Assembly (NCBI GenBank): GCA_014871385.1
Contig: CM026429.1
Coordinates: forward strand, 14,371,979 to 14,435,978
Origin: Ceratodon purpureus
Taxonomy: Eukaryota; Streptophyta; Bryopsida; Pseudoditrichales; Ditrichaceae
Direction: 5' to 3'
Length of the DNA stretch: 64,000 nt
Shown: piece after piece, positions 18,459-37,632 of the stretch
How positions within the stretch are numbered: position 1 is the stretch's first letter
How the letters are laid out: the number at the start of each line of letters is the position of its first letter
Translations under genes and position numbers: made by a program
The notes under the pieces: model-generated
What the model saw: the letters and a program-made list of their open reading frames with translations, nothing else
Database searches by the model: none
What the model was told of the DNA's origin: nothing

Positions 18459-19257
18459 ATGTCTAACTAACGAGAGAAGTCTCCTCACAATATAGCTCTC
18501 CTCCTAACTTTCCTCTAACTTATGTATCCCAAACCTGCAACCCCCCTGACTCAGCCCTAAATACTTCCCATATTCTAAACCTACTTGAATTAATGAAAAC
18601 TATAAATAAATTGCAACTTGAATTAAAGCTGATGAGATCAATCTATATTTGAAGAGAATAAACCAAGCCCACATAATATTAAAAGATTTGAATTAAGCAC
18701 AGGAATACTTGTATTAAATATGGATGCAAGTGACGGCTCACTCTAATCTCACTCACAATCTGTCTGTCCAGCAATTTATTATGAATATTGAGGAATTCTA
18801 ACACTGAATAAAATATAGAATTTGAATAAATCATATGCTTGCATTAGTCCTATAAATATATAACTAATGCATGAATTTGATTAATTCAAATTCTATATAT
18901 TTATTGTTTTAAATGCAGAAAGAGTAGACGGCTCTTTTTAATCCAATCACACCCGATAAAATATAGAATCTGCTCCACCATTCAAATACGCGAAGCAATA
19001 TTCTAAAAATCTTCCTACAGATTTATGGGCCTGAAAAAGCAACATCATAATTAGTTAGCGCCGTCTCTCTTTAATCATACATTCGTTACGTAGCAGAATG
19101 AATCATTACCTAGTCGTCCACATGGACATTCCAATTTGAATAAAATGATCAACAGCGATGCATCATTCCTCTCACTTCGCTGAGCTCGCGATACTGCTTT
19201 GCTAGTACACTCACTCTTCTTCCTTCTTCCTCTAGTATATTTGAGTTGCCTGCGAAT
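18459..19257. other. AT-rich spacer between two divergent genes
   Basis: No coding signal is seen between the minus-strand exon A and the plus-strand transposase start. The sequence is rich in AATTGAATTA-like words, and CCGTCTCTCTTTAATC near 19,060 lies just upstream of the transposase. A bidirectional promoter is possible but unproven. Confidence 0.45.
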
Positions 19258-22200
19258 ATGGGGATGGTCTGTCTGTACGCCCAAGGCATGGGCATCACTC
19301 TTAGGTTTCGCGTAGATGACGATGGTCTAGCTACGGTGTCCTCTCTTCGCCTCAGTCTCAGATTCCATTTTCGTGAGGATTCCATCAGTATAGAGGAGGA
19401 GATCTTTGATGACGTTACTGCCGAGGTTACCCACACCCTCGGGCAACCTTCAGTGAGAGATGAGAACAACATGTTGCAGTGGAGACTCCTCCCTGGATCC
19501 TATAGAGTCTATGGTCTTACTGATTCTCTTATGGCTGCATCCACCGAGATCCTCACCCCCCGTCGCTCTTCTACTTGCACAATTCAGACTCCCTTACCTC
19601 GTGATGTCAAAGTCAAAGTCGAGCCTGGTACCGAGACTTCAGATGTAGAGAAACCTCCTCCGACCGTCATATCTCTCTCTTCTGATGACGAAGTCAGTCC
19701 CGTCAAGTTGGTGCCCAAGGTCCACGCTGATGCTCCTCCTTCCAATGTCTCACCTCCATTGTCCCAGGTCACAGTTAGCATTGTTCCGCTCCTTAAAGAG
19801 ATTGCTAAGACGCGTGGGTCCAAAAACATTTTGAAGAAGATAGACTATTCCACTATTAGACACGAGAGAGTAGAGTACTTACCTGCGAAGTTTGATGGTC
19901 CGGTTCTTTTTGAGTTGCCCCCAGCTGCTGCAGGATCCTCTAAGCTCGCCGCCAAGTCTATGCAGGGAATGGATAAACGATACGACGGACACTTGTGGAC
20001 CAAGACCATCACAACAAACATCAAAAACGACTTCGGACTCTCTTTTCGAAGTTCCACTTGCGTCGGATGGCTGCGCTGCACCAACCCGGAGTGTGACTTT
20101 CTGAAGCGTGTTCCCAAGATCTTCGACGTTAACGAGACTGAGTTCGAAGGCTATACCCTGCAAGCTTTTGTCATGGATCAGCCTCCTCCATCTGACTCGA
20201 CGCTAGTGTGCAAGGTATGTAAAGAACCTCCATCATGTGTAGCTACATGCGAGGCTAAGATTTATTACGTTGTGGGCAAACCAAATCAGACTAGAGCTTG
20301 TATTCACATAGGAACACATCAACATCCAGTGAAAGTAGGAGACTACAGAGACTCTAAAGCAGAGATTAGTAGCTTAATAGAAGAGCAGGTAGAGATGAAC
20401 AACAAAGCAACTAAGAGCGCTGTTGTCCTGGAGGCGAGCAAACTCCTCATCGGGAGCTACCTTCTACACCCCGAGGATGCACCACCGAGGAAGCTGACGA
20501 TGGAGGAGTTGGTTCCTGTTCTGGATCGATGCAAAGACATGGCGTCGCCCAACATCCGCAACAAAGTCGCCACCTTCAAAAAATTCAAAAGGTACGGAAT
20601 CATGGACGGTATCACCAAGCTCCGTGGTAACAGTCTCTGGGCGTATGTCCAGGAGAATAGGTTTCCTGGTCAGGGATCTATGCGTGACAAAGTCTTCCTC
20701 TTCAAGATGTCGGAGGTTGGGCCGGGAAGTGGTGTCGACTTGGTCAGCCGAATGCAAGCTCGTGGCGACTTGGAGAACGCATGGATCATGTTCGACCATG
20801 TAAAACGCGTCAAAGACTGGTCAACCATGGCGTGCCATGTGTACGACGCCACCTACTGCCGCGTGATGACAATCGCCACTTGCGACATGCAGTCCGAGGA
20901 CACGGACGCCCAGCTCGTCTTCTGGAAAAACCTGAACCTGGTCATGGAGATCAATGGCGTTGCAGCGCCGAACTTCAAGGGGTTCATGGCGGATAACGCA
21001 CAGGCGAATTGGAATGCAGTGCGAATCCTATACGGCAATGGCAACAAAGAGGACCCAATGGAGGACCGGGAGAGGTCGTGCTTGTTCCACTGGACTCAGA
21101 ACATGGTGGCGTATACGCAGAAGCACTTTCCCGAAGAACTCTGGGAACAGCACAAGAAGATGTGCACTCAGTACAAGAATGCGACCAGCATGGCAGAGGC
21201 GGAAACTTTGTACCACGCGTTGCGAGCATGGTGGGCATCCACCGGGGTCGTTGGCGAGAGCGGGCTCATCAAACTCGATCAGTGGCTGTCATTCTGGCAC
21301 CACCGCTTCCGCCAGTGGGGGGGATTCATGACCGAGGTACGATCTCTGCACTCTGTTTTGATGTTTTTCATACTGGTTTCCTATCCCAAATCTACAAAAC
21401 TCTAATCCGTGAATCTAACGGCACCTACTGTCAAATCTGCAGAAATTCACGAAAGAAGAACTCACAGAGATGCCGACCTGTAACCTCGCCGAAACAGTTC
21501 ACAACAAGTGGCTCCAAGCCTCAGGAAACAACGGGAACGACCTGTACGTTGCTACCGTGGACGATTTCGTTCGGGCTTTTCTACAGGTTGTCAACTACTA
21601 CCAGTTCCTCAAAGGTGACGTCGGCGGAACAGGACCGTCCAAGAAGGAACTCAGGCTCCGGATGGCTGAACGCAACGCGAAGAAATGGGGAAATCCTACA
21701 CTGCTTGATAAGCCCATGCTCGATATGCCAGGCGCGGATGAGTTCTGCACCCGTCAGCCTATCATGCCTGGAGCGGAAGTCTTCGGTTCACAAAAGCGAA
21801 AAGCCGACGTCCCCATCGGAGCTGACGAGGAGTCTCATCGCCCGGACAAGACAAACTTCTCACGCCCAAGAGGCCCAAGACGTGCCGTCAGGGCTCGCCC
21901 TATGCAGATGCCAGTCATTGTGGAAGACGACTCCGAACACGACCCCGAGGTAGAAGGTACCCAATCTCCTGCCGAGGAAGTTGATTCCCCTTTACCTTCA
22001 CCTGTGAACAAGGGCGGCATTCGCCATGTCAACGCGGTTGAAGAAACCAAGGTCGACGTCAAGGAATGGCACATTTCCAGACTTCACAAACTTTCTGCGA
22101 AGTGCTGCTGGGCCCAAAGAGCTGAAATGAAGAAGAAGTGCACTGAGAGAATCGTCAGGGGGCCCCTTTGCACAGCTGCACCGACCTACACTGGGCTGTG

Positions 22201-22954
22201 GACTAACTATCGCAGGAACACAGTCGAGAAGACAGAGTTCTTCTTCTGCTCCGACGATATTGAGCGCTGCGTGAAAGGCTCTAAGCGCAAGTGGGTAGCG
22301 CACTACTCAAAGGACCAGGAATTCCCCTCCATTCCTGACGTCTGGCCAGTGAAACTAGGTACTAACCTAAAACTGACTGAGATTCTTGCCCTCGAAGCAG
22401 CAGGCTTTCAACTTCCGCCGAAGAAGCCGGTCTCCCCAAGACGCCTCTTCTCCTTTGCCCCGCCCCCTGCAAATCTCAACTCGGTGCCAGTCCCTGCAGA
22501 CGCTGACCGCTACCCAGGCAAGAGAGACGGCAAGATGGTGAAGCGCACTGCCACTCGTCCCAATCCGGCGCAGCGACTATCCATGGGCTCCTCCGAGTCT
22601 CTCAAAGCGCGCCTCCGTTCCGTCACCATGATACCTGAGCCGGGCCACGGTTGCATCATTGGGCTGGATTCGGGCGTCGCTCCACACATCACACGTTACC
22701 AGATTACCATCAGTTCTTACCCTGGTTGCACTTGCCCAGCATTCAAGAAGACGATGACTACGTTCAAAGGCAGGACTCAGTTCACGTATTGTAAGCACCT
22801 TTACTACATACTCTTGAAGGTCTGCAACCGTGATCCCGAGGCCGAGCTTTTCATCCATGCGCCTACCTTTAGCTTCAACGAGGTCAAGCTTCTCCTAGAG
22901 AGTGGAATCTTGCGTCACCCCTTGGCGAAGAAGTACGTAGCCCTCCTACTTTAG
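19258..22954 (+). CDS. MULE-like DDE transposase with C-terminal SWIM zinc finger, apparently intact (1196 aa)
   Basis: This is a cut-and-paste transposase-type protein. Exon 1 is 19,258-21,336 (693 codons) and exon 2 is 21,443-22,954, joined in phase 0 by a GTACGA donor and a CTGCAG acceptor. The catalytic core is readable: Asp530 in HVYDATYCR, Asp579 in GFMADNAQ, the CLFHWTQ box at 608-614 typical of MULE-type enzymes, and Glu710 in CNLAETVHNKW. A CCxxC-rich region (CTNPECDF, CKVCKEPPSCVATC) precedes the core, as expected for a DNA-binding module. The SWIM finger is C1122-x-C1124 ... C1143-x-H1145. The N-terminus carries an acidic Ser-rich SLSSDDEVSP patch. No terminal inverted repeats were located, so it may be an autonomous element or a domesticated copy. 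ATG at 19,258 is the first in frame. Confidence 0.8.
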
Positions 22955-23190
22955 AACTGCCGTTTCCACAATGGCCATTTGTCACGTAGTGAATGATTTT
23001 AGTAATATACCATGTATTAAGTCAGCTATTCAGAAGCTGTATTGACTTTTTCATTATATTAAAGGCTTTGTCGTTCACATTGATTGCATTCTATTTCAAT
23101 ACATTCTATCTTGAACAAGTGCACTGTATACCTCGTATCCTCTGACATGTACCCTTTATTACACCAAACATATACTTGGTATTGGATGTC

Positions 23191-23643
23191 CTAATCTTCG
23201 AACCTAACACGTTTAGGGTTGCCCACTACACTATCAGCAGGGCTTCGAACCTCTGACTGTACTGCAGGACAAACTATATTTGCATTCACTTTCGTTCCAA
23301 CATTTGGCAAGTGTCCTTGGTATGAACGTTTCAGCAATGGCCCACCTCCCCGCCTCCGATTCACTGATTCCCTGGAATAGGTTCCCCTTGGGATCTTTCC
23401 AACCCTGGAGTATGCATGAGTTTGCAAAGGCACATCTGCGTTCTCCTCCAGCACTCTGATATCATCCGAATTTTCTGAACGTGGAGATTCAGCTCTTACA
23501 TCCGGTTGTACGTCAACATCCGTTGTCAAAGGACGCCCTTGGCTGTTGGCCATCACCTCTTCTTCGTCCTCGACCTCAACATATGGTTGAAATGGACAAA
23601 CATCGTCAGCAAGTGATACAACAATATCTCTAACGTCTTCCAT
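23191..23643 (-). CDS. Hypothetical acidic protein, 150 aa
   Basis: I do not recognise it. The frame starts with ATG at 23,643 (MEDVRDIVVSLADD), is acidic in the first third (EVEDEEEV), basic after (NRRRGGGPLLKRS) and ends with KRVRFED. It lies tail-to-tail with the transposase, 237 bp away, and could be an accessory gene of the same element or a chance frame. No domain is visible. Confidence 0.4.
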   Translation of the reverse strand: MEDVRDIVVSLADDVCPFQPYVEVEDEEEVMANSQGRPLTTDVDVQPDVRAESPRSENSDDIRVLEENADVPLQTHAYSRVGKIPRGTYSRESVNRRRGGGPLLKRSYQGHLPNVGTKVNANIVCPAVQSEVRSPADSVVGNPKRVRFED

Positions 23644-24391
23644 AACTGCTGTCCCGCACTACGGAAAAGAGCTTCACAAAACACCAACAGAAAAGAGGAA
23701 GAGACATACAATAATCCCACCTTAAATATCCGTGAAGATGATGCTTGGCGCCCTTGAAAACCGGCTTTTCATTGATTCGAAAGTTGTCGTCCTAAAATGA
23801 ATGAAAAAGGATGAGGGTTGAGCAGAAGTCATTTAGCATTTAAAATTTAAAAAAATAAAAAATAAAAAAATATATAAATTATAAAAGCAAAATAAAATAA
23901 TAAAATAAATAAAAAATAAAAAACAAATTATAAAAAATGAAATTAGAAAAGGAAAAGTAAACAAAAGGAAAAATAAATATTAAGGTTGAAAAAAATATGA
24001 AGGCGATTGAGAAAATAAAAGAGAAAATAAAATGAAAGAGAATTAAAGGAAAGGACTCTTTTGACCCCTTTAACAAGATAGATAGAATAATGGAAGTTGA
24101 TATAAAAAATAAAAGATAAAAAGTTGTAAGGCATGTAGACTATGGCGGATGAATTCTAGCAATGTTAAGAAAATGTTAGGAAATTAAATGTTACTTGATT
24201 CCTTTTAAGAGGTTCAATACGAATACATTTTAAGTAGTAATTTGCATATAAATTTGAGGAGATAAGGGAAATTAATGTATGCCTGAACTAGTTAGAAGGA
24301 GCTGGAGCATAGTAATTGGTGCACACTAAAAAATAAATCACCAAGAAAAGAGAAAATGAACTACAAATTCAATGAAAATACTGTAATTAAT
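23644..24391. other. AT-rich spacer with simple A/T-rich runs
   Basis: Positions 23,845-24,120 are almost entirely A-rich with AAATAAAA and AAAGAGAAAA words. Frames there are low-complexity artefacts. No gene is seen before the second dispersed-repeat copy. Confidence 0.6.
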
Positions 24392-24587
24392 CCACGGTTA
24401 TAGGGTCAATAAAAGTACTAAAATTAGTAACTTTCTAAAAATATACTAAGAATATTCGAATCTTCTAATTTTATAATTTATTTTTAGTAAAAAAATTGCT
24501 ATTTTAAGGTTCTGTCCCCCATTCTGTGCTCTCCGCTCTCCAAATCTGCGCTCACCGCTCTCCGCTCTGCGCTCTCCGCTCACGTAC
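24392..24587. repeat. Dispersed repeat, copy 2 (left border of the Mutator-like element)
   Basis: It starts CCACGGTTATAGGGTC and ends with the CT-rich block 24,521-24,587 (ATTCTGTGCTCTCCGC ... CACGTAC), matching 5154-5260 at both ends. It has an extra AT-rich middle and a short extra CT-rich word. It abuts the truncated transposase exon, so it probably marks an insertion or deletion breakpoint that removed the transposase 5' end. Confidence 0.6.
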
Positions 24588-24602
24588 AAGCTACGTCCCC
24601 AG

Positions 24603-26036
24603 AGTGGCTACCGAGTGCATTCATTGTCGATGATGCATTAGCTGAGATTAACGCCATAATGTACGTATTCTGATATCTCTGTCTGCGTACTGTCTCGTGA
24701 TTTGCCGACTCGCAAGCTGTCTCGTGACATACCGTTCCGCACAGTGTCTCGTGATTCCCCATCACGCATACTGCACCTCCACTTCTGTACCCGTGATATG
24801 TCTCGTGCGTTTCATAGGTTGGTATGGCCCAAGATTAAAGTATTCCTATGCCTCTGGCATGTAAGGCGGGCCTGGCAAAAGAACGCCTGTGCCAAAATTA
24901 AAGGAATAATCACCAGAGCGTGGGCGCTGCGGGAAATGGGAGCGCTCATGTACATCGAGGAGTCTCCCGATTCGAGGTTGTCTGTCTTGGACTACGTGAA
25001 GGCTAGGTTCGCGAGACTGAAGACATTACTGTCCGGCGCTGCTGCTTTCTGGGCGTACATTGAAAAGTACTGGATGATAAAGCCCGAAATGTGGGTGACA
25101 GGGAACAGGCACATACCACATGCTGGTCAAGACACGAACGCAGGGATTGAGTCATATCATGGACACACAAAGGCCACTCTGAAGGCCGAGAAGAGTCGGT
25201 TGGATGGAAGGCGTCTCGATTGGCTCATTCACGAGCTCACAAACAACGTCGTAACGAAATACGACTACAACCAATACATGAAGGAGAATGGCTTCATAAC
25301 GAACAAGAAGGCAGAGCGAATCGTTAGAAACTCCATTATATCGGCGAACAAGATCCCGGACTCCTCTGTCTCGCTGCCGTCTCGACCCGGTGACCCCGCC
25401 ATAGTCACGTCGTCCAAGCGAGCCCACATTAGATACGCCGTGTACAATCCCGATACGGAGTGGGCTGTTTGCGAATGTGTATGGGCCCAGAAAGGAAATC
25501 TTTGCAAACATCAGCTGAAGGTTCTTCGTGTAATGAGGCCTGACCTTGCCGACGGGACGATTGTGAAGGTCTGCGGGACACTGTACGGTACCAAGCTAGG
25601 CGGTGTCTCGGCTCTCCTAAATCCCCCGGGACCGGGAATTCCAAGCGAGACTGAAACCGGACCGTCGCAGGATGTCCCCGAAGACTGGAATGCCAACAGC
25701 GAGACACAGGATGTGCCCACGGTCGACCCTCCACCGAGTCAAGAAGACGAGGTGGCAAGAATGAAGCGCATCATAGACCAAACGGGAAGAGAAATCACGG
25801 AACGAGCTGCGAGACACTACGTCATTCAGAAGCACCTGGCGGCGGAATTGGCAGAGATGAATACGAGACACGCTGCCATGGAAACGAGGATTCTAGCCGG
25901 TCTCCTTCATCCAACGGAGCGAGACGCCCCAAGATTTGAGAGGAATGACCCGAACAAGCCCAACTCGCTGAAACGGAATAGGGATTTCCTCGACGGGGGA
26001 CGCGTCGGACGTCCGCCCAGATCCACGCAGGAGTGA
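24603..26036 (+). CDS. MULE-type transposase with SWIM zinc finger, 5'-truncated (424 aa remain)
   Basis: The remaining exons are 24,603-24,660 (after a CCCCAG acceptor) and 24,818-26,036, separated by an intron with GTACGT and TTTCATAG ends; phases match. The join gives FIVDDALAEINAIM followed by LVWPKIKVFLCLWHVRRAWQ, the region of the second catalytic Asp and the LCLWHV box of MULE transposases. TNAGIESYHGHTKATLK matches the catalytic Glu region. The SWIM finger is CECVWAQKGNLCKH. Everything upstream, including the first Asp and the DNA-binding module, is missing at the dispersed repeat, so no full enzyme can be made from this copy. The C-terminus is a charged helix (EEDEVARMKRIIDQTGREIT) followed by a basic tail. 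TGTCTCG motifs occur in several reading frames inside this exon. Confidence 0.75.
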
Positions 26037-26071
26037 CCCCACGTCCCTGTCTCGGATTTCTATATTCGATG

Positions 26072-26110
26072 TGTCTCGGATCGAGACAGCGGGAACTCTA
26101 CCTATAAGTA
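26072..26110 (+). promoter_or_regulatory. Predicted promoter: paired TGTCTCG motifs plus TATA box
   Basis: TGTCTCG (26,072-26,078) and its inverse CGAGACA (26,082-26,088) face each other across 3 bp, followed 14 bp later by CTATAAGTA (26,102-26,110). The first ATG downstream is at 26,223. The arrangement suggests an active promoter using the element's own motif; this is inference. Confidence 0.5.
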
Positions 26111-26222
26111 CACCCGCCACGACTCGTACTTTCTTTTTATTTCTGCAAGTGTTGAGTGGGATTCATAATCACGGGGTACCAGTTTCCGTAGTTCGCGTTT
26201 GGCGTTCAATTGGGTTCGCAGA

Positions 26223-26609
26223 ATGGAGTCCATGAATGTTAACTTCTTCAATGGGAGGGAGGACACGGTCCCGGGAGTTCATCCGGAGGGGCCTGTCTCG
26301 GGTCCCACAGGCTGCTGTGATCTCCAGGAATTGGAGGCCGACGCTTTAGAGGTACAGGAGCAATTGTTCTTGGAGGCATCATATGATATAGCATTATCGT
26401 CTCGGAGAATGAGCTCTGCGAAACGGAATCAAGTGGACGCGTACCGTATACCGAGACAATACCTTGGCGGGCAGTCCCGAACACGAACTGTCTCGAGACG
26501 AGACGGGGTCGACTACGAGTCCCTTACGTACGTGGGCATGTGTCTCACCCCTTGGAACCCCACTAGGTCAAGGAGGATGTTAGGACCATCAGCATTCGGT
26601 AAACTGTAG
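26223..26609 (+). CDS. Small element-encoded hypothetical protein, 128 aa
   Basis: The frame starts at ATG 26,223 (MESMNVNFFNGRED), about 113 bp after the TATA box, and ends in GPSAFGKL. It follows the transposase on the same strand by 186 bp. Residues include an acidic Leu-rich stretch (LQELEADALEVQEQLFLEA) that could form a helix or coiled coil, then a basic Arg/Ser part (SRTRTVSRRD). No known domain is recognised. Its place beside a MULE transposase recalls the accessory genes of VANDAL elements, but similarity to any of them is not claimed. The frame may be only an exon: TTCGCAG just before the ATG could be an acceptor. Confidence 0.4.
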   Translation: MESMNVNFFNGREDTVPGVHPEGPVSGPTGCCDLQELEADALEVQEQLFLEASYDIALSSRRMSSAKRNQVDAYRIPRQYLGGQSRTRTVSRRDGVDYESLTYVGMCLTPWNPTRSRRMLGPSAFGKL

Positions 26610-27064
26610 CTCTAGATTGTGTTGTAGCGAATTTATTGAAGTTCTGTCTCGGATTGTAGCCTAGGAATTATCGATACTCTTTTATGCGCAATGTAGACAA
26701 GTATCGGATGTAAAAGAATCTTCCGTTTTCTAATTATACGTCACACGGTTTCCCGTGGAAAATTTTGTTCAAAAAAATTTCTTCTTTCCTCTCCGACCCC
26801 TGGGAGCCAAGCATCCCACATACGAGACACTGAGCTCTCAACTAGTCACAGGGAGTCCACTACAAACGAGAGGCGAGACAGTCACTTCCCTTCCTTGGAC
26901 TCTCTCGGACTATACCATTCATCTATACACTGTCATTGTGTCCTTCAACTATGCACTACATCTCTACTACTGTACGTCTCCCTCCCATCCCCAAAACTGG
27001 TACTATGTACTGAGCAGTCCTGTACAAGTCTCCTGCCTGTCTCGCCCCAAAACAAAACCGCAGT
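26610..27064. other. Convergent 3' spacer inside the element
   Basis: Lies between the small plus-strand gene and the end of the Ulp1 gene. It contains a few TGTCTCG motifs (for example CGAGACA near 26,825 and 26,875). The overlapping short frames look like chance. Confidence 0.5.
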
Positions 27065-30000
27065 CTACAGCCGTCGTCTCGCCGAGCCTGAAGGAGAGTG
27101 CACCATCTTCTCGAATTTCTCACGCTTAGACTTCCTGGACTTGGTGGCGCTTCCGAGCCTCGCCTTTGTGTCTTCCTCCTCCTCAGAACCTGGTGCTCGT
27201 GGTTCACGGATGTGGAACGCATCCACCTTGTACCCGGTCCGAGACATCGCTGGCGAAATACCGAACACTTGGACCCCGCCTTTTAGTGTGACGTAGTCCG
27301 GGACAACGATATCCACCTCCATCAGGTTAGGCAAGTCATTCAGACTAGTCCCGCAGATCCTCGGTCTTGGTAATCTGTCGTCCGCACGGGCTGTCTCGAT
27401 GTACAGCTGCTCCATGAACCACAACTGCATTTGCTGCCCAGTCCATTTCAACCACCGCTTCTTCTTCATTTTCTCCGCAGGCTTCGGGAAACGACAACCA
27501 TATCCACGAGTGACCATGTACTGCCAGAACTGGAAACTCATCGCGTATCCGCACTCCCATGACTCCTTCTGGTTCGGAGCCTTGAGCGAGACACATCCGC
27601 GAGACACTACCTTCCACCAGTCTTGCGATCCCGGAACAATTCCCCTGGAGCTCGCCCACGCGATGTGCACCAACGTGACGAAGTTGTCTCGAGCCTCCGT
27701 GTCGTGTATGTGGAGGAGGGATCCAAGGTGATATGTCGTGTCTTGCTCCACAACAAACAGGGTCCAGTGATCCTTATCGCAATAAGGGATCACCAACGTG
27801 TTCTCCCGGCCATTGCAACCTGAGAGCCACCGGATTCCGAAACTCCCCAGCCATTCCCAGTCCCCGTTGCACTCCAGGATGTGCGCATCCAAGACAGTAT
27901 TGACGTTGGATTCTGCCACCACATACTGTCTCGCGACGTGGTCCGGCGATCTCAGAACCAAGTGCCGAAGTAGGAGGTCCACGAATGGCCCAATCATGCA
28001 CGCCTGTGGTCTGAGTACGCACTGAGCCCACTCTTGGACCAGGACAGGGATCTTCACGGCAATCCGGGGGTCGTTACCAAAGTAGATGATGTAATCCCCG
28101 TACTCCGTCTCGGCCACATGCCCTTGCCTGAAATAGGAGACAGTGATAATGTTAGATCCGAGACAGGGTAGAACCTGGACAGCGCTATAGGAACATGATA
28201 TCGGGACACCGCGAAACATTTTCAAGAATAAAAAACATGGACACAACGAGCCTAAACATACCATGAGTAATAAAACATGCCATTCACGAACTTAAGAACT
28301 TACTTGAAGCAGCCAACGTGGAATGGAATCATCAATACCCCAAGCACTGCCTTCCAATCCATCTGTACTCCCTCCGAGACAAGCTCCGTCTTGAAATCCT
28401 TCGGGGGCTCCAATGTGTTCGGAACAGGCGTGGCAGGGTCCATGAATTTAAAAATCCAGTGGCTCCCCGGTTTCAATTTACTCGGCGGTATTGGTGCGCC
28501 AAAGTCGAGGTCCCAAATCTTGAGTCCTTCCTCTCGTGACCCAATTCCAGAGGACTGTCCCTCGTCTGACTCCGGCTCCTTGTCCTCCTCGACCACTGTC
28601 TCGGACGCCGCCACTGCGTCTAGTAAAGACACAATATTGCAACCCCCGTTAATTAATGTCCCTCTGGACACTGTATGATGAGTTGGTGTGCAAGAAAGTA
28701 ATTGCGAGAATCCGAAACAGTCCATCTGGGATGCAGAGGGAATGCCATCGCCCAATGGCAGGGAACTGAACCCGTCTCGCAATTCTTGGGTCCATGTTCC
28801 GGGACACTCACCTCTGGGTTTCGCGGCTGCCACTGTCTCGAATGAGGCAGCCTCCTTTCGCGGACTCTCGTACCGGCGAGGCGAATCCACGGAGGCAATG
28901 TCAACAACCTCATTCATTTCGTTATGATATGGGGATGAAGGGCTCGCTGTCTCGGTCCCTTCCGAGTCTTGTGGAGGTTCGTCGACAGGTATCTCGTGAC
29001 CATGGACGTTCAAGTGCCCGTACACCAACCTGTCTCGCGAAACCCCGTCAACAGCCGTCTCGGCAGCGGACCACCGGTCTTGAGCGACACCATTCAAGAA
29101 AGTGCGCACTGACAACGCACTGCGCAAACCAGAGGCCCAGGCCGGCTCTGCAAAGAAGGTCCAAGCCGTTAGCTTCGGAACGCATGAACTATTTCCGAGA
29201 CATTCTTACTACAAGACATCAGAACATGGCCTCTGTGTCGGATATGAACTTACCATCCGCGAGAGGGATCCAACGGAGATCTAGGTCCTCCCGTCGAGTT
29301 AATGCTTGCCGCAAAATCTTCAAGCACTCTGGGAATACCTCTTCCGAGACGGGCGCCGTCAACTGCCACGCCGTCATGAAGGATTCCGTCTCGGAAGATG
29401 CAAAGTCCTCCAGTGCCCGAGCCTGGACTGAAAGGAGCCACGCCTGCAGGGCATCCGAGACACCGCTGTGGAGGGACATGCATGCTGCTGTAATGGCGTC
29501 CGACGTCTCCGTCTCGGCGTTTGGATCAGCACCGAACAGTGTACTCCCAGCGGCCTGAACGAGACACCTCGCTGTGTCTAGAGCTCCAGGCGAAGACAAC
29601 TTCTCCTGGACACTTTTGTCCAGTGCTCCTTGCAGTGGGTCCGCTGAGCTGTTATACCAGAGCACGAGGAAAATATGAGGGGCCCGTGACGGTTTTTTTT
29701 TATTTTAAATTATGTTGAATTGAATAAAGTACCTCAGGAGGAAAAAATAAAAATAAACAAGTACACAATACTGACCTGTACCGAATATTGTGGACAAGGA
29801 GGAAAACGCGAATGATCTTTGCCTCCAGACCTGCTCCGACTGGCAGCGTCCGTCTCGTACCGAGTGCCTTGACCACGTCTCGCGCCTCCGTTTCGTTGTG
29901 CTTCCAGGGCATGGGAGGTAGCCTCTCCGAGACAGCGGGGTTCTTCGCGCATATGTGGTACAGGGGATTCCAACCCCATGACACTTCCTCCAACTCCCCA

Positions 30001-31832
30001 GCCTTGGACTCCTCCCACGCTGCAACCCTGTCCGCGATGAATTTCTCCTTCAGTCTGGCGTTATGAAGGCGCTGGGCATCTACGGCCTCCTCGTGTTTCT
30101 TCCAGTCGTGGACATTGACGTAGTAGTCCATGGAGGCGTTCGCGAGACGATCCATCTCTGTCTCGGACATTTCCCCGGTGTCCAACACTTCAGAAAGATC
30201 TGCCGCTAGACCGCTATCTCTCTCGGAGTATAGAGAATTCTGCAATTCAGAGAGTACGGCAGTCCTCCCCCGTTAGCAACCTTGAGGCACAGATTGAAGT
30301 GCGAGACAAGTATGAAAGATAGACGAAAATGAATTAAAATATCGCAACATATTAACGACAAATACAAGTTATTATAAAATAATGAAGTTGAGAACTCGAG
30401 GGAGGAGATGTCGTACCTTTCGATTCAACTTCTGGAATCGGAAGTAGGTAAGCGAGATGATTGTCTCGCGCCCCTCCTTCTTCAAGAACTCCCCCAGTCT
30501 GGTCCGAAGAGTTCCCCTGTCCCACGTGTGGAACTCCCTCTCCTCCCCAAAAAGCCCGTAATCCATTAGGATGGTGAGGCCCGTGTGTCCCAAGCGTGTC
30601 TCGGGCTGGCGAATTGGATCTATTGTGAACAGGGACTCCGCTGCCTCTTGAGCCTCCTCCACAACCTTCTCCTTGTCTCGCATTAAGGCGGACATTGGGC
30701 TCAGGGGAACCTCCATCGGGGCCTCGTCGACAACCATAGCCACCGCTCCAGTATCCTCTGTGTGGACAGTGGGAGTGGAGACGGCCATATCAGAGCCGTC
30801 CCCGGGACGTATCCGAGACGTATCCGAGGCGTATCCGGCTGTCTCGTCCCGGATTGGGGATGGCGGTTTCTCGTCCGATGGTTTCGGTCGCTTCGCTGCC
30901 GTCGTGTTTGTCTCGCTCCTTGCCGCTGGGACCCTCTGTGCCGGGGTGGTCTTGCGTTTGTTTTTCCGAGAGTAAAACTCCGTGTCCTCGGGTTCCTTCT
31001 CCGGCTTGGAAGCCTTCACTTCAATGTCTCGTCCTTTCTTGTCTCGCTGTCGAGGAGGGAGTCCTGCCCGAGGAACAACGACAAACGTATCAGGTACAGC
31101 TCCCGTGGCGTCCTCTTCGCCTGCAGATGTGTCTCGCCGGGGCGGTGAGAGGATGATAGGGACAACAGCAGGCGTCGGTGCCGTCTCGGGATTGGGGATG
31201 AACGGTCTTCGCTCCACCACGGGCGAGTCCGAGGCCTCAAAGTCACTGTCTGCCTGTGCCTCGGAATCTGAACTGCTCAGCACCATTTCCAAAGTCCTCA
31301 CAGCCAACCTATCAGGGACAGATTTTCTCTCGGCCTTCATGGGTTTCTTCGTCTGCTTCTTCGGCGATCTATCACTCGGACCACGAATCGCAGGGACGCC
31401 TTGTTGGAATTTGACCGGCTCCCCTCGCCGCAACATAGCCTGTGTCTCGTTCACGTAGTCCCTCACCAACTTCTGGGGCGAGACACCCGCTTGCAGCTTG
31501 TCAATGGTAACGTTCTTCTCAAGCAGATTCGGGTACATCTTCTCCGGGATGACGTTACCGTTCGCGTCGACATTTAGGGGGCACCCGTGCCACCTATGAG
31601 TATTTAGACGCGCCTTCTGAGCACACATGGGCTCCCCATTCTTGCCACGGCATTTGTGCTTGCAGCAGAACAATCGACGTCCTAACATCACCGGCGCGCT
31701 ATGACACTCCAGGAGCAAATTCTTCCACTCCTCCCATGTGTAGTGTTCCGTGAACAACTTCTTGTCGCTTTCGTGGACCTCCGTGACGCCGTCGTCCGTG
31801 ATCTGGAGGTTCCTCCTGTACTCGGGAGCCAT
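27065..31832 (-). CDS. Large Ulp1-like (C48) cysteine protease gene of the element, five exons, 1393 aa
   Basis: Exons on the minus strand are 31,832-30,417, 30,239-29,776, 29,648-29,254, 29,147-28,304 and 28,127-27,065. All donors are GT (GTACGA, GTCAGT, GTAAGT, GTAAGT), all acceptors AG, and all phases agree (4182 nt, 1394 codons with stop). The N-terminus holds a Cys/His cluster, C56 C57 H59 C61 C70 H79 H82 C84, perhaps a zinc site. The middle is long, acidic and Ser/Pro-rich. The last exon has the Ulp1 signature: His1160 in KDHWTL, Asp1182 in HIHDTE, Gln1226 in NQKESW and Cys1232 in ECGYAM, so the triad is intact. Ulp1 enzymes cleave SUMO-like conjugates in the nucleus. The C-tail is basic (KSRKSKREKFEK). 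CGAGACATG overlaps the start codon. Confidence 0.8.
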
Positions 31833-33310
31833 GTCTCGCTAACTTGAACCTAAAACAAACAGGGGCGGAGGTTAGTAACCTGGATGCGAAGTTTATAAGG
31901 CCTTCCGAGACACAGACACAACGCCGAGACTGCGAGACAGCTGCGAAGCAAAAACCGTGCACATCAAATTCGGCAGGAACTGTGGACGACAGGAAGGAGC
32001 CTCTACGACGGATCGTTGTCTCGGCGAAACATGAACGACGAATCGGGACAGAAATTAAGATTCTATGCACAAAATTGGTATACTCAAGAACTCCCTCCCA
32101 ATTCCAACGCGAGACACTCCTGTAACGGGGGCGACATCGTCGTCCTCATTTGATTTCGACAATAGCAGCGAGGCCACCCACAACGACCGCAGACAAGATA
32201 CACCTGAACAGTATTCCACGAGACATGTCTATCCTAAACCCTAAACCCCAGAACGTCGTGACGTATGACTACTAAACCCTAAAACTAATCTCTGTGACAA
32301 ACTCCGGCAACAAAATCGCTATCGTCTCTCCGGAACACCATAAAAACAAACACATAGAAGATGATGATCGTATACATACCTCGATTGCCTCAGCGAAATC
32401 GCCTTTGCACTCCTCCTCCGAGCAAATCGCACAAACTCCTGGATCGCGGCTCCAGCAACAGACTCCGACTCCTCACTTCTCACAGCACTCTCAGACTCTA
32501 TCACAACACTCTCCGCCCATGAAAGCGCCTCACGCACAACACTCTCCACCTCCCAAACACTAAGCGCAACACATCTAACAATGGCGCGAGACAGCGGAGA
32601 AGGAAACGGAGAGAAATTGGCAGCGAAATTAGCAAACTTCGACAACGCGCGCATATAAACCCTCGCACCTCCTCTCGAGGGAACACTCTCACCACCCCAC
32701 GAGACAACTCTCGCAGCTCTCCTCAGGCAATGGCATAAAATGAGTCCGGTTTTCCAGGAGGCCGCCAATTTATACAGAGAGCAGGGGGGAGACGCCATCA
32801 TCACACCTACTGAACCTCAGAAATCAAAATCGAGGAAAAGGCTGCAAGAGACGGCGCATGATCTCCACCCACAGAACCCCATCATCACCTCAACACCCGA
32901 AACAGCTCCGACGAGACAGACTGAAAGCAGAAGTGACAGGAGAGAGCAGAAGTGACACCCACGAAAATGAGACATCATACCCTAAAACGTGGAAGGTCAT
33001 TCGACAGGACGTGACGAATTCTGTCCGTCTCGGATGGATGAAAATCTCCATGCATGCCCATGGGCCATGGTGCCATGAGGCTGTCTCGCGAGACAGCCCA
33101 TGCATGGGGTGTCTCGTCTTTCTGGGTTCCGAGACGAGACAAGGTGGAGGATGCGGACGTGGCAGGGAGGGTTTCGAGACGGGGTCCGACGTGGCATCCC
33201 GAGCCCGGACACGGCTCGCGAGAGGGGGGGAGCGACGGAAAGAATTCTGGAGCGAAAGAAGGGTCTCGCGCCGTGGGCCCTGTCTCGCGGGACCGCCGCG
33301 GAAGGGAACA
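31833..33310 (-). promoter_or_regulatory. Leader and upstream region of the Ulp1-like gene, rich in TGTCTCG motifs
   Basis: A leader intron is predicted from GTATGTATA at 32,379 to TTTGTTTTAG at 31,850, placing a short 5'-UTR exon piece directly before the ATG at 31,832. Two telo-box-like stretches (CTAAACCCTAAA, near 32,235 and 32,272) sit within the intron. About 18 TGTCTCG/CGAGACA motifs occur here, including the perfect 16-bp palindrome CTGTCTCGCGAGACAG at 33,081-33,096 and an inverted pair at 33,110-33,118 and 33,133-33,141. The GC content is high and drops sharply after about 33,400. Confidence 0.5.
32740..32955 (+). CDS. Possible small basic protein, 71 aa
   Basis: The ATG at 32,740 lies 80 bp after a plus-strand TATA-like CATATAAAC (32,652-32,660). 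The peptide runs from MSPVFQEAANLYREQGGD to a basic end with SKSRKRLQE and RSDRREQK. It opposes the Ulp1 gene, so a divergent transcript is possible. No domain is recognised, and a chance frame in GC-rich DNA cannot be excluded. Confidence 0.25.
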   Translation: MSPVFQEAANLYREQGGDAIITPTEPQKSKSRKRLQETAHDLHPQNPIITSTPETAPTRQTESRSDRREQK

Positions 33311-35702
33311 GAAATAGCGAACGCCATTAAGACGTGGGCGAGGATTATAGTCAGGGGAAGTTTGAGATCCATCCGTAGGGCGCCATCATGCTTGTTAAAA
33401 TACAGGTCCTCAATTATAACGTCCAATGTTGCGCATCATGTTTGACCTACAAAAAATGAATCACCAAACATTAGTTTGATGTAATATTATATGTGGATGA
33501 AAACTAAGTTTTGAATGATAATTTTCATGTAGATGAAAAAAAATAACCAACGTCTTTAGATGGAAACGAGTAGTTAGATGGAAATTGTTTATTAGATGAA
33601 AATTGTCATGAACGTGTATGGTTGAAAAAAATATAGGGCCCATCATTGCTCACGATGACTGTTAGGATTTAGAGTAGATTCTTATAAAATCCATAACTTC
33701 TGCATTGTAACTCCAAATGCTATGAAATTTGCGCCCTTTGAAAGCTACCAATGACAACTATGTGTAGTAAAAATCTCAGAGAATTCAACAAATGTGGAAG
33801 CTTAAAATAGCCTGTCTATAAATGTTGTGACCACAATGTGGTCTCAAAGGCCAAGTTACAAATTAACCAATTCCAATTTTCTTGAGACGGTACCCTAATG
33901 AAATTTAATGACGAATTTCCTTTTCTTTTAATAGACTTTTCTCAATTCTCTGCGTACATTCCTCTGCACCCAATGCTGCGCTCATCAAAGCTCACAACCA
34001 ATGCAGGGCCCAAGAAAATTGCCAAGTTCTTGTAGACGTTAATTCTTATCAAAGAAACAAAACTATTTATGGCCAATTTACTACACAAAATTTTGGTGGA
34101 TGATGCTGCTGAAGGACTTTTGAAAACAAAGAGAAATTAGTAGTCAAGTACTAAGAAATATTGAGGTTTATAACGGTGGTGTGACCTCTATATCAACATG
34201 TTATTACTGAAGTATCACCTCAATGTCACCCTGCTATCATATAAGTAATGAAGAAACCCTTACTACATGGAAATTCTGAAAAAAGTGAGAGTGAGCTATA
34301 CATCATTTTGAGAGTTTTTCCCAATTAGTCTTCTCAATTTCTTTTAAAGACCACTTAAACTTGGAAAATTTGCATTATTATCTTAATTTCGGGGGCAATG
34401 GAAGCTCTTCTTGGTTGCAGCTGTGTTTTGCATTGAAGTGTGGGTGTTTGAAATACTGGACCGTGTTGTGCATTTCGATGGCATTGTTGATAGGTTGAAA
34501 CGGTACTTTAGAGCGAGTAAGTGGCACCGATCTAGTAAGAGCAAATGCAGAGCAAGTTAGCGAGGACGCAGACACAACAAAGACGTTCAGAATGTAATAG
34601 AAAGATGGGATCTACTGGATATGAGTTCGAATTACCGAAAACCATGATCGAAGTTAACATTGCTAAGGACGAGGCGCTTCTCACACAACGATTACAACAT
34701 TAGAATATATTACATACCATTACTGCACCGCATGGACATGAGAAACATTCAACATTCCCCTCTGGAAGAAGCTACTACGAATGATCAACTGCTTTTTCAA
34801 CATTTCAGTCTTCCCCGTCTGGAACGAGACACGTATTTTCAACGCCAGAATATACCACTAGACCCTTTGCCTGGCAAAAGAACATCTAGGTTGTCATGTA
34901 ACAAAAGAACTCTAGAATCCGGACTGACCAAACATGATACCCATCTCTTGGCTTCCAAGCCTCCACACCGGAACAAACGTGTCAGTGAGTCAGATAAGAA
35001 ATCCTGCAGGATACATATTCTAGCTACTGTTACAGTAGGGGTAACCAGATGTAAGAAGAAAATGGTCCAGCCTGCATGTACTGTAACGACCAAAAGAGTC
35101 ATTACATTAACCTTGATCAGAGTCGACCACTGTGCTAATCTTCAGCTACAGAACTAACTTATTCAAATCTGTTGTTCAAGCCAAATGAAGGAGCTAGCTG
35201 TACAATCGAAGTAACTGACACCCATCCAGGTTCCTCACTGATGAGAGATTTTGGTGTACTGTGGAGATATCAAGACCGAATGATGACTCCTTACCAGGCT
35301 GCGTATCCACACAACTTTCAAACCCAATTGAAGTGAGCCCAACTCTGACCAGACCAAAGTAGCACCGACCAAGATTGAGGGGCTCTCCTGTGCAGTCGAA
35401 GATGAGGTAAGCTGTACGGGTTCAGAGGTTTGAACATATGAATGTTCATCAAAATCCCAAGTGTGTGAGTAACCTAATTCCTCCAAACGCCAGTTTCGTG
35501 TTGGCAAATGATAGGACGATACTCAGCATGGACGTCAAAATCTCAGAGACATACAAAAGCAACACACACACGAGCGGAGTCATCGCAGAAGAGTACTTAC
35601 AGGAAGCAATCAAAGGTCTTCTGTAATTTTGAGACCGGTTGGTATATCGACTGAAAAAGAATTACACAAATTTTCCTGGCGTAGCAGGCAGCTAATCAAC
35701 AC
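33311..35702. other. Intergenic, no supported gene
   Basis: Positions 33,460-33,620 hold irregular repeats of GATGAAAATTGT and TAGATGGAAA. The rest is AT-rich. A 165-codon plus-strand frame at 34,660-35,157 has no protein-like character or splice support. TGTCTCG drops to one copy (CGAGACACG near 34,824). Confidence 0.55.
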
Positions 35703-37154
35703 CTATTCAACGTATTCTACCTTTGTACTCATGCTCTTCGAATGCTGGTGATGCAAGGAAATGGCATGGATGTAACCTTTAGCGGTTGAGTAAGAGACGT
35801 CGTATTTTTCACAGAGACGAGCGACAATGGGCTGCAATTGAGGGAGGTGGCAATGGTTCACGGTGGGGAATAGGTGGTGGATGACCTGGTAGTTCAAACC
35901 GCCACTGAAGAGGTGGCAAAACTTGCTCCCGACTCCAAAATCCTGCGCTGTGACGACCTGGTGCTTGTACCAGTCTGAGTCCGCCGCATGGGTCGTGTGA
36001 GGGAGGAGATGGTTGATCTGTGTGTTCATCATGAACAAGCAAGAGAAGAATAGGTATGGAAAGATCGCGAACACAAAACACTTGGTCCAAGTATCCAGCA
36101 CCAGGAAAGGCCAGGCGTGAATGACGACGATCGTCAGGGTCCTCCCAATGACGTGCACCATCCTGCGCGGCCCGCTGATGGCCATCATGGGCACTACCTC
36201 GTTGTAGAGATTGCTCTGCAACATCCAGATATCCTCCATGGTCGTCATCCCGAACTCAACCGCCACGGCCCACCAGAAGAGCATGTACCACAAGGTACTC
36301 TGCTTCTTGTGCTCCGGCAACCATTTCACGTCCTTGTGCTCCCGCTTCATCCAATAGTGGTGCAACACGTCCGGATCCCGCTCGCTGAGGTTCGGGTAGC
36401 TATGGTGACCTATGTTGTGTTGGTGATACCACACAAAGGGACTAGAGAAGTAAGGGTAAAGGTACGGGACAAGAGCATTCACCCTCCACTTGGTAGACAA
36501 GGCAAAATGAGTCGCGTCGTGAAACGTATTCACTCCAAGCAGCCAAGCGGAGAGCGGGAACAGAATCAGGAATCTCCAATCCCCTCTAAAGAACCCAGGA
36601 AATGTAGCGATGTACAACACAGCCAAGACCGCGATCTCAATCCAGCGCGCCGGCGTCGCCTTCGTCGCCTCCCGAATGGACACATTCCGCCTCGTCGCCT
36701 CCCCTTGGAAATACTCCTTAACCTGGAATTTGAGCGCCTCCCCGAACCCACTCGGCCAGAGAAAGCTATGCTCCGCGACGCCGTGCCGCTGCTCCAGCGT
36801 CTCCAAATGCTTACTATCCGACGCATCAATTTCGTACTTGGCAAGAATGGCGTCCAAGATTTTCCGATTCGTGAACGGATGGTGGCTCTCGAACATGACA
36901 GACGCGTCGCGCCCCCTCGCCAGTCCCAGCGCCACCGGCCCCCCCGGATGGTGCCTCTCGAATTCCGTCAAGTCATACCACTTCCCATGTATCTTCGTCA
37001 GCAACGCCGTCGGCTTCGCCGCCGTGAACAAGCTCAACGGTTGCCACTCCAGGTTCGGCCTGCCGACAACTCCCGGCTTCACATGGTTCGTCATCATACC
37101 CACATCCCCTGCCGCCCCCTCTGCAACGCCGTTCTCCCCCTCCGCCCCCATCAA
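35703..37154 (-). CDS. Cytochrome b5-fused front-end fatty-acid desaturase, 483 aa
   Basis: Predicted ER membrane enzyme that introduces a double bond between an existing one and the carboxyl end (delta-5/6/4 class) of polyunsaturated fatty acids. The N-terminal cytochrome b5 domain shows the haem motif HPGG at 69-72 and a second His pair near 91. The three histidine boxes are HDATH (212-216), HNIGHH (246-251) and QVIHH (423-427); Gln in place of the first His of box 3 is the mark of front-end desaturases. Hydrophobic segments surround the boxes (171-210, 284-300, 332-380). The length is normal for the family. The gene is intronless, unlike its neighbours. ATG at 37,154 is followed at once by another Met. 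Regiospecificity cannot be read from sequence; delta-5 is a guess from the HDATH/HNIGHH pattern. Confidence 0.9.
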   Translation of the reverse strand: MMGAEGENGVAEGAAGDVGMMTNHVKPGVVGRPNLEWQPLSLFTAAKPTALLTKIHGKWYDLTEFERHHPGGPVALGLARGRDASVMFESHHPFTNRKILDAILAKYEIDASDSKHLETLEQRHGVAEHSFLWPSGFGEALKFQVKEYFQGEATRRNVSIREATKATPARWIEIAVLAVLYIATFPGFFRGDWRFLILFPLSAWLLGVNTFHDATHFALSTKWRVNALVPYLYPYFSSPFVWYHQHNIGHHSYPNLSERDPDVLHHYWMKREHKDVKWLPEHKKQSTLWYMLFWWAVAVEFGMTTMEDIWMLQSNLYNEVVPMMAISGPRRMVHVIGRTLTIVVIHAWPFLVLDTWTKCFVFAIFPYLFFSCLFMMNTQINHLLPHTTHAADSDWYKHQVVTAQDFGVGSKFCHLFSGGLNYQVIHHLFPTVNHCHLPQLQPIVARLCEKYDVSYSTAKGYIHAISLHHQHSKSMSTKVEYVE

Positions 37155-37632
37155 TGAAGCGCAGGCGCGGCCTCAAACTCCTCCTCTCCAGCTCGCTCAC
37201 AAACTATTCAAGCCCCCCCTCCCACAACACCTCACAACCATCCACCCAACCTCAAACTCACTCCCTCCCTCCCCCCTCACGAATCCCAATCCAAAAAACC
37301 AACACCTTCCGCACAATCCCACAGGTCTCTTCTCACACAATCCCACAATATAATCCTCCCTCTCAACAACAAAACCAAGATACTCCACTTGACTGATCTT
37401 CGCTTCACCAAAGCTACCCAGCACTTCTAGCACACCACCATCAACACTCACAGCAACAAACAACAAAAACACTCACAACTATCCTCCCCAAACACAAAGA
37501 TCAACACACTTCACTAATCTCCAGCTAGCTCAACACTCACACAGAAATACAATCCCCCCTAAAACCTCAACAACAAAAACATCAACTTACAAGAACACAC
37601 AAAACACACACTTCACTCCTGATCAAAAACCA
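37155..37632 (-). promoter_or_regulatory. Upstream region of the desaturase gene
   Basis: The sequence is A/C-rich on the plus strand (many CAACA and ACAAA words), typical of a 5' leader on the minus strand. No clear TATA box was found. Confidence 0.35.

What the first reader, a model, noticed from the sequence alone, without database searches (positions are those of the whole stretch)
24691..33287. TGTCTCG/CGAGACA motif repeated about 80 times across one Mutator-like element
Seen directly: the 6-mer GTCTCG or its complement occurs roughly once per 100 bp over 8.6 kb, on both strands, in the transposase and Ulp1 exons (several reading frames), introns, promoters and flanks. About 4 would be expected by chance, and elsewhere in the window it is rare. 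It stops sharply at both edges. Spread across all reading frames implies DNA-level selection. Known parallel: VANC anti-silencing proteins of Arabidopsis VANDAL MULEs bind short motifs that accumulate in their own family. Inference: this may be an independent system of that kind in a non-seed lineage, or a dispersed transposase-binding array.
Basis: partly seen in the sequence, partly recalled or inferred. Interest (0 to 1): 0.92.

Follow-up and report, generated by a model that had tools for sequence, protein, structure and literature searches.

The report
Jumping gene peppered with one word
A plant jumping gene carries the same short DNA word about every 100 letters through its genes and spacers alike, which looks like a self-recognition tag that one of the element's own proteins may use to mark and protect its copies.

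Summary
Confirmed. GTCTCG/CGAGAC occurs 86 times in 24691-33287 and 9 times in the rest of the window; dinucleotide shuffles give 7.6 (max 18 of 500). The word is YGTCTCG (T 61, C 21 of 86). Sites lie in both orientations, at random spacing, in coding (8.7/kb) and noncoding DNA (12.1/kb; P 0.15). Shuffles keeping protein and codon usage give 8.8 where the Ulp1-like gene has 37, and 1.65 where the transposase exon has 10. Apart from one 27-bp tandem trio, site flanks look unrelated, so most sites arose independently. The element is a left-truncated Mutator-like element: part of a transposase plus an uninterrupted 1393-aa five-exon gene whose last exon weakly resembles Ulp1 proteases. A second MULE-like gene in the window lacks the word. 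Best reading: a self-recognition array bound by an element-encoded protein, working like VANC/VANDAL anti-silencing. It is not shown to be a VANC: no DUF1985 hit, no noncoding restriction, hardly any tandem arrays. Binding, demethylation and other genomic copies are untested; no copy's DNA could be reached. Proteins of 71-99% identical relatives hint that the word is shared, but stricter controls are inconclusive.

The parts
24692..33287 (.). Field of 86 GTCTCG/CGAGAC sites (consensus YGTCTCG), 48 on + and 38 on -, mean spacing 101 bp
24521..24660 (+). Remnant of the upstream transposase exon (region of the second catalytic Asp, WLPSAFIVDDALAEINAIM), ending at an ATAAT|GTACGT donor-like site; no word here
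   Evidence: tblastn with P0009, 32% over 59 aa, E 0.002; translation; donor read from the sequence
24661..24817 (+). Putative transposase intron with four sites, three of them in 27-bp tandem repeats (24690-24770)
   Evidence: splice sites inferred from sequence, no transcript evidence
24818..26036 (+). Last exon of the MULE transposase with a SWIM-like Cys/His segment; 10 sites
   Evidence: 47 relatives at E<=0.001, best 90% identical; Pfam SWIM only sub-threshold, 12.3 bits against a cut-off of 19.6
26037..27064 (.). Spacer between the two convergent genes, 13 sites in 1028 bp; holds a small unassigned ORF at about 26226-26609 (+)
27065..31832 (-). Five-exon gene for a 1393-aa Ulp1-like protein, exons 31832-30417, 30239-29776, 29648-29254, 29147-28304, 28127-27065; 37 sites in the CDS, 3 in 586 nt of introns
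   Evidence: gene model by splice consensus, phase and open frame; relatives of exon 1 and exon 5
31833..33290 (.). Upstream region of the Ulp1-like gene and right flank of the element, 19 sites in 1458 bp
33020..33290 (.). Densest stretch (9 sites), with a perfect 16-bp palindrome CTGTCTCGCGAGACAG at 33081 made of two facing sites

Best explanation
The sites are a self-recognition array. A sequence-specific DNA-binding protein encoded by the element binds YGTCTCG. The first candidate is the 1393-aa Ulp1-like protein with its Cys/His-rich N-terminus; the second is the transposase. Dense binding along the whole body marks DNA as own family and keeps it from being silenced, or reopens it, so copies that gained sites by point mutation were expressed and moved more often. 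This works like VANC on VANDAL elements, but the array grew by scattered single-base changes through exons and introns rather than by tandem repeats in noncoding DNA. Shown here: the word, its excess beyond protein and codon constraint, its confinement to this element within the window, flanks that point to independent origins, and an uninterrupted accessory gene. Inferred: binding, which protein binds, anti-silencing, and family-wide distribution.
For: Sharp word, 86 against 7.55 in dinucleotide shuffles. Excess beyond protein- and codon-preserving shuffles in both genes; GTCTCG/CGAGAC is the top 6-mer of the Ulp1-like CDS against that control. Similar density in coding and noncoding DNA, P 0.15, and no excess of similar flanks at >=16 of 30 (6 pairs vs 4.4). 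Orientation and spacing fit random placement. A second MULE-like gene 2 kb away has 2 sites in 3808 bp. The 1393-aa reading frame is uninterrupted and exon 1 keeps a Cys/His cluster in both relatives. The 1393-aa protein has an excess of residues able to encode the word, z 7.2; five relatives (71-99% identical) have z 2.2-3.2. CpG observed/expected is 0.97 in the element (0.88 with sites masked) against 0.67-0.84 in flanking stretches.
Against: No binding, expression or methylation data. No DNA of any other copy was reachable, so a family-wide word is not shown. Stricter tests on relatives are not significant: site-by-site compatibility equals control sites (P0048 7/10 vs 8/11, P0049 7/10 vs 9/11, P0001 9/10 vs 7/7; best P0051 8/9 vs 3/7, P 0.08), and permuting differing residues gives P 0.065-0.21 for P0001, P0051, P0048, P0049. 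The window's own transposase reaches only z 1.9 and its Ulp1 exon z 1.7 in the footprint test. The copy is truncated in the transposase. No DUF1985 or C48 Pfam hit; the N-terminal 151 aa match no Pfam family at E<=10. CpG content is confounded by coding content and age.
Confidence: 0.45

Rival explanations
1. Dispersed transposase-binding array: the transposase binds YGTCTCG all along the element, for end-finding, copy discrimination or protection of the element's body from self-insertion, with no role in silencing.
For: The transposase is the one protein every MULE family needs, and the densest stretch is the right flank (9 sites in about 270 bp). The transposase exon itself carries the word.
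Against: Transposase sites are usually terminal or subterminal (recalled); here the density is uniform (KS P 0.70). The DNA-binding N-terminus is missing from this copy, so it cannot be examined.
Confidence: 0.2
2. Host-factor array: the element has collected sites for a host DNA-binding protein (activator, insulator or demethylation factor) that keeps it open.
For: TGTCTC is the classical auxin response element core (recalled), and TGTCTCG is the commonest form, 61 of 86.
Against: The trailing G is all-or-none (TGTCTC followed by another base 3 times), C replaces the first T in 21 of 86, and TGTCGG, a strong ARF site (recalled), is 1 against 4.3 expected; so ARFs do not fit. A host factor used by one element would be expected elsewhere too, but the second MULE-like gene has only 2 sites.
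Confidence: 0.17
3. Drive without benefit: biased gene conversion or templated repair between copies favours the word, as uptake bias does for DNA uptake sequences in Neisseria and Haemophilus, without any silencing role.
For: The pattern (both strands, all frames, random spacing, little flank similarity) resembles uptake sequences more than VANC arrays (the uptake-sequence papers PMC1939737 and PMC2397512 were seen only in a search listing).
Against: No known eukaryotic process favours a 7-base word (recalled). Neighbour words are only mildly raised (26 vs 21.5 and 32 vs 20.2).
Confidence: 0.1
4. Artefact: adapter or cloning sequence, a tandem repeat, or codon bias.
For: GTCTCG begins one Nextera adapter (recalled); one 27-bp tandem trio exists.
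Against: Flanks carry almost no shared information beyond -1 and -2 and are not unusually alike at >=16 of 30; protein- and codon-preserving shuffles do not explain the count; all frames are used; relatives from other sources encode closely related proteins.
Confidence: 0.02

Closest known systems
VANC/VANDAL sequence-specific anti-silencing in Arabidopsis (VANDAL21: YAGTATTAY; VANDAL6: AGTTGTCC/AGTTGTAC; PMC5735166, parts 1-3 of 6 read)
   Same: A MULE with a transposase and a large accessory gene; one short word (here also beginning with Y) at high density in the element and rare around it; a plausible element-encoded recogniser.
   Different: VANC words lie mainly in noncoding DNA, in tandem repeats and in one orientation; here they are in exons as well, in mixed orientation and almost never in tandem. 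No DUF1985 hit. Binding and hypomethylation are shown for VANC, untested here.
Kaonashi/KIU Ulp1-carrying MULEs (passages of PMC13317346 seen)
   Same: A MULE with an accessory gene that has an Ulp1-like C-terminal segment.
   Different: The Ulp1 match here is weak (E 0.068) and no relation to the KIU genes was tested. PMC13317346 places the KIU capture near the monocot-eudicot split, whereas the host here looks like another lineage (not established).
Bacterial DNA uptake sequences (DUS/USS)
   Same: A short word spread through coding and noncoding DNA in both orientations, by single changes rather than tandem copies.
   Different: Genome-wide, in bacteria, tied to natural transformation; here confined to one eukaryotic transposon within the window. 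Seen only as a search listing and recalled.
TnpA of Spm and MURA of MuDR (as cited in the Discussion of PMC10398659)
   Same: A transposon-encoded protein that lowers methylation of its own element.
   Different: Their sites are terminal or subterminal (recalled; for MURA the paper says TIRs), not spread through the body and exons.

Membership tests
Mutator-like element (MULE) | MULE-type transposase | tested here: met
   47 relatives at E<=0.001 among 8000 scored candidates, many with precomputed PF10551; PF10551 confirmed in P0027 at 4e-10. The window's own fragment gives no MULE hit because that part is missing.
Mutator-like element (MULE) | Terminal inverted repeats and 9-bp target-site duplication | tested here: inconclusive
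   No inverted repeat between 33280-33450 and 23000-26000 beyond 15 of 20 bases; the left end appears truncated, and non-TIR MULEs exist (passages of PMC6446971).
VANDAL/VANC | Accessory protein with DUF1985 | tested here: not met
   No DUF1985 in Pfam scans of the exon ORFs at E<=1 or of the N-terminal 151 aa and five relatives at E<=10; a very diverged domain could be missed.
VANDAL/VANC | Short word dense in the element and rare outside it | tested here: met
   86 inside, 9 in the rest of the window. Only one copy and one window were examined.
VANDAL/VANC | Word mainly in noncoding DNA, in same-orientation tandem arrays | tested here: not met
   47 of 86 in coding sequence, orientation order random (P 0.32), one tandem trio.
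VANDAL/VANC | Protein binds the word and causes sequence-specific hypomethylation | not testable with these tools
   Needs ChIP/DAP-seq, EMSA and bisulfite data.
Ulp1-carrying MULE (Kaonashi-type) | C48 (Ulp1) protease domain | tested here: inconclusive
   Profile of 4 sequences matches the Ulp1-like SUMO protease 6dg4 at E 0.068 with the HW, Q and CG blocks aligned, but the catalytic Asp of 6dg4 falls opposite Gly in the query; no Pfam C48 hit; structure model pLDDT 38.6.
Auxin response element (ARF) array | TGTCNN with invariant TGTC (recalled) | tested here: not met
   First T is C in 21 of 86, the trailing G is required, TGTCGG is 1 against 4.3 expected.

The most novel reading that the evidence does not exclude
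An independent self-recognition code in a plant MULE that is not shown to belong to the VANDAL lineage: the family has written one 7-base word through its entire body, exons included, strongly enough to change its own proteins, so that an element-encoded binder can coat whole copies. It would be a eukaryotic counterpart of DNA uptake sequences, used for epigenetic self-protection.
Probability: 0.4. Interest if true: 0.9.

Novelty: new variant of a known kind. Interest (0 to 1): 0.77.

Why it matters
Sequence-specific anti-silencing by a transposon's own protein is demonstrated for VANDALs in Arabidopsis. A second, independently built system would show that transposons can evolve word-based self-recognition repeatedly, and that such words can spread by point mutation through coding sequence. 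The open question of how target words accumulate would become testable by comparing copies, and the element would offer another protein-word pair for locus-specific epigenome work.

Tried and rejected
Auxin response element (ARF) array: rejected on word shape. Adapter, tandem-duplication or codon-bias artefacts: rejected. RNA-level element: no consistent transcript strand; in the Ulp1-like CDS both sense forms are raised (GTCTCG 11 vs 1.7, CGAGAC 26 vs 7.1 expected). Helical phasing, ordered orientation: none seen; a second strong word after masking: none. Positional conservation in relatives through protein compatibility: raw counts looked good, but controls removed significance. In one search the comparisons of the window with P0002, P0004, P0005 and P0009 are inflated because the window row includes translated intron repeats, and the rows of the exon-5 alignment include read-through intron residues; of the transposase comparisons I rely only on P0003 and P0001.

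DNA of other copies: none reached. Viral contigs was scanned three times and genome contigs twice without a relative. Structure of the Ulp1-like segment: the model was too poor, so no fold search was run. The paper on eudicot VANC evolution (PMC9016345) is not held; I know it only as cited in PMC13317346 and PMC10398659. Literature: nine paper searches; their listings, as far as shown, hold no report of a GTCTCG array in a MULE. The library is partial.
Full report
OBSERVATION. The finding is real. In 24691-33287 there are 86 GTCTCG/CGAGAC against 9 in the rest of the window (9 in 55,370 bp). Dinucleotide shuffles of the segment give 7.55 (sd 2.7, max 18 of 500). Position -1 is T or C in 82 of 86 and position -2 is C in 41 of 86; the other flanking positions carry almost no information. 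The trailing G is all-or-none: TGTCTCG 61, TGTCTC with another base 3. One-step neighbours are only mildly raised (26 vs 21.5 for TGTCTCG, 32 vs 20.2 for CGTCTCG). The word is therefore sharp: YGTCTCG.

DISTRIBUTION. Sites are uniform along the element (KS P 0.70), gaps fit an exponential (KS P 0.64), orientations are mixed (48 and 38, order random, P 0.32), and no phase peak appears between 9.5 and 12 bp. Coding sequence has 47 sites in 5401 nt (8.7/kb), noncoding 39 in 3229 nt (12.1/kb; P 0.15; 11.4/kb and P 0.25 without the tandem intron). All six frame classes occur in the Ulp1-like CDS. A shuffle keeping both the protein and its codon usage leaves 8.84 (max 18 of 2000) where that CDS has 37, and 1.65 (max 6) where the transposase exon has 10; GTCTCG/CGAGAC is the top 6-mer of that CDS against this control. 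Flanks of the 86 sites are not clearly more alike than random positions at >=16 of 30 (6 pairs vs 4.4) or >=17 (3 vs 1.4); at >=15 there is an excess (35 vs 13.2), which I attribute to the shared -1 and -2 bases without having tested it. So most sites seem to have arisen one by one, except a 27-bp tandem trio at 24690-24770.

ANATOMY. The GC-rich element runs from about 24.5 to 33.4 kb between AT-rich flanks. On the + strand, 24818-26036 encodes the C-terminal part of a MULE transposase: 47 relatives at E<=0.001 among 8000 scored candidates, best 90% identical. Its SWIM-like segment scores below Pfam's cut-off. A weakly matching remnant of the preceding exon, with the region of the second catalytic Asp, ends at 24660 (E 0.002). 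The first-Asp part was not found in the window by tblastn with two longer relatives (P0027, P0037), so this copy looks truncated and its sharp left edge is probably a truncation. On the - strand a five-exon gene (27065-31832) encodes an uninterrupted 1393-aa protein (model from splice consensus, phase and open frame, no transcripts). Exon 1 has two relatives at 71-75%; exon 5 has three, at 99, 75 and 37-39%. The N-terminus has a Cys/His cluster that I read as a zinc finger; this is inference, since no Pfam family matches it at E<=10. A profile of exon 5 matches an Ulp1-like SUMO protease only at E 0.068; the HW, Q and W(D/E)CG blocks align as in the protease, but its catalytic Asp falls opposite Gly. 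Pfam finds neither C48 nor DUF1985 (exon ORFs at E<=1; N-terminus and relatives at E<=10), NCBIfam finds nothing for exon 5, and the AlphaFold model is too poor to use (pLDDT 38.6).

COMPARISON INSIDE THE WINDOW. A second MULE-like transposase at 19144-22951, which I recognised by eye (no MULE or SWIM hit in Pfam), has 2 sites in 3808 bp, and no other stretch in the shown rows of the k-mer scan has a comparable word. Within this window the phenomenon is specific to the one element.

RELATIVES. No DNA of another copy could be reached (genome search did not complete). I therefore asked whether proteins carry a footprint. The potential of a protein to encode the word, against shuffles of its own residues, is z 7.2 for the 1393-aa protein (exon 1 alone 3.2, exon 5 alone 1.7) and 1.9 for the window's transposase exon; z 2.2-3.2 for P0001, P0048, P0049, P0050 and P0051 (71-99% identical); z 0.4-1.3 for P0002, P0003, P0008 and P0038 (53-62%); and 0.44 or less for P0052 and nine other transposases. 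In all 19 of 52 relatives were tested; two control proteins of the window gave -0.1 and -0.4. Close relatives inherit part of this from common ancestry. Two stricter tests are weak. Site-by-site compatibility does not exceed control sites (P0051 8/9 vs 3/7, P 0.08; P0048 7/10 vs 8/11; P0049 7/10 vs 9/11; P0001 9/10 vs 7/7; P0003 3/9 vs 1/7). Permuting only the differing residues gives P 0.065 (P0001), 0.126 (P0051), 0.157 (P0048), 0.206 (P0049), 0.051 (P0003) and 0.053 (P0002); the window's own differences from P0003 favour the word (P 0.007), those from P0001 do not (P 0.68). One suggestive detail: in the last intron, which P0051 also reads through, the 12 residues before CLGSN share one residue with the window while CLGSN, encoded here by TGTCTCGGATCTAAC, is identical; a branch-point-like CTAAC lies in the same stretch, so this is not clean. 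The family-wide claim is suggested, not shown.

MECHANISM. A 7-base word present some 80 times in unrelated flanks of one element, over exons and spacers alike, asks for a recogniser that acts on DNA and rewards or spreads carriers. The published case of this logic is VANC on VANDALs: an element protein binds a short word at high density and causes loss of methylation in its own family (PMC5735166, parts 1-3 of 6 read; PMC10398659, abstract, Introduction and Discussion read). The present element has a large uninterrupted accessory gene that could play this part. CpG is little depleted in the element (0.97; 0.88 with sites masked; flanking stretches 0.67-0.84), and the site's own CpG shows no symmetric decay (GTCTTG 11 vs 5.4, GTCTCA 2 vs 5.7); this fits low methylation but is confounded by coding content and age. 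I put the VANC-like reading at 0.45, transposase binding at 0.2, a host factor at 0.17 and drive without benefit at 0.1.

KNOWN OR NEW. It works like VANC if the reading holds, but it is not shown to be a VANC: DUF1985 is not found, sites are neither restricted to noncoding DNA nor in tandem. Hosaka et al. wrote that motif accumulation in VANDALs is hard to account for by simple base substitutions and pointed to tandem repeats; here scattered substitution appears to be the mode. The listings of nine paper searches hold, as far as shown, no such array; the library is partial. I call it a new variant of a known kind.

HOST. Neighbouring genes (front-end desaturase with cytochrome b5; UreF, chlorophyll a/b-binding protein, syntaxin) point to a green plant or alga; plant-telomere-like CCCTAAA repeats agree. 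A non-seed lineage is plausible but was not established by any search.

Noticed in passing
5355-17189: About 69 copies of a 171-bp tandem repeat (94% matches), GC near 68%, open in several frames on both strands with a 57-residue period.
   Followed up: no
19144-22951: A second MULE-like transposase with a SWIM-like C-terminus in two ORFs, recognised by eye; no MULE or SWIM hit in Pfam and only 2 copies of the word.
   Followed up: partly
5209-5254 and 24528-24581: The same GCTCTCC-type 7-bp minisatellite borders both the 171-bp array and the truncated left end of the element; it may mark the breakpoint.
   Followed up: no
32233-32283: Two short CCCTAAA telomere-like repeats upstream of the Ulp1-like gene, possibly telo-box promoter elements (seen).
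   Followed up: no
26226-26609: A small ORF of about 127 aa on the + strand between the transposase and the Ulp1-like gene, which could be a third protein of the element; not tested.
   Followed up: no
35703-37172, 49891-50493, 52792-53592, 61760-62353: Host genes: cytochrome-b5 fatty acid desaturase, syntaxin, UreF and chlorophyll a/b-binding protein.
   Followed up: partly
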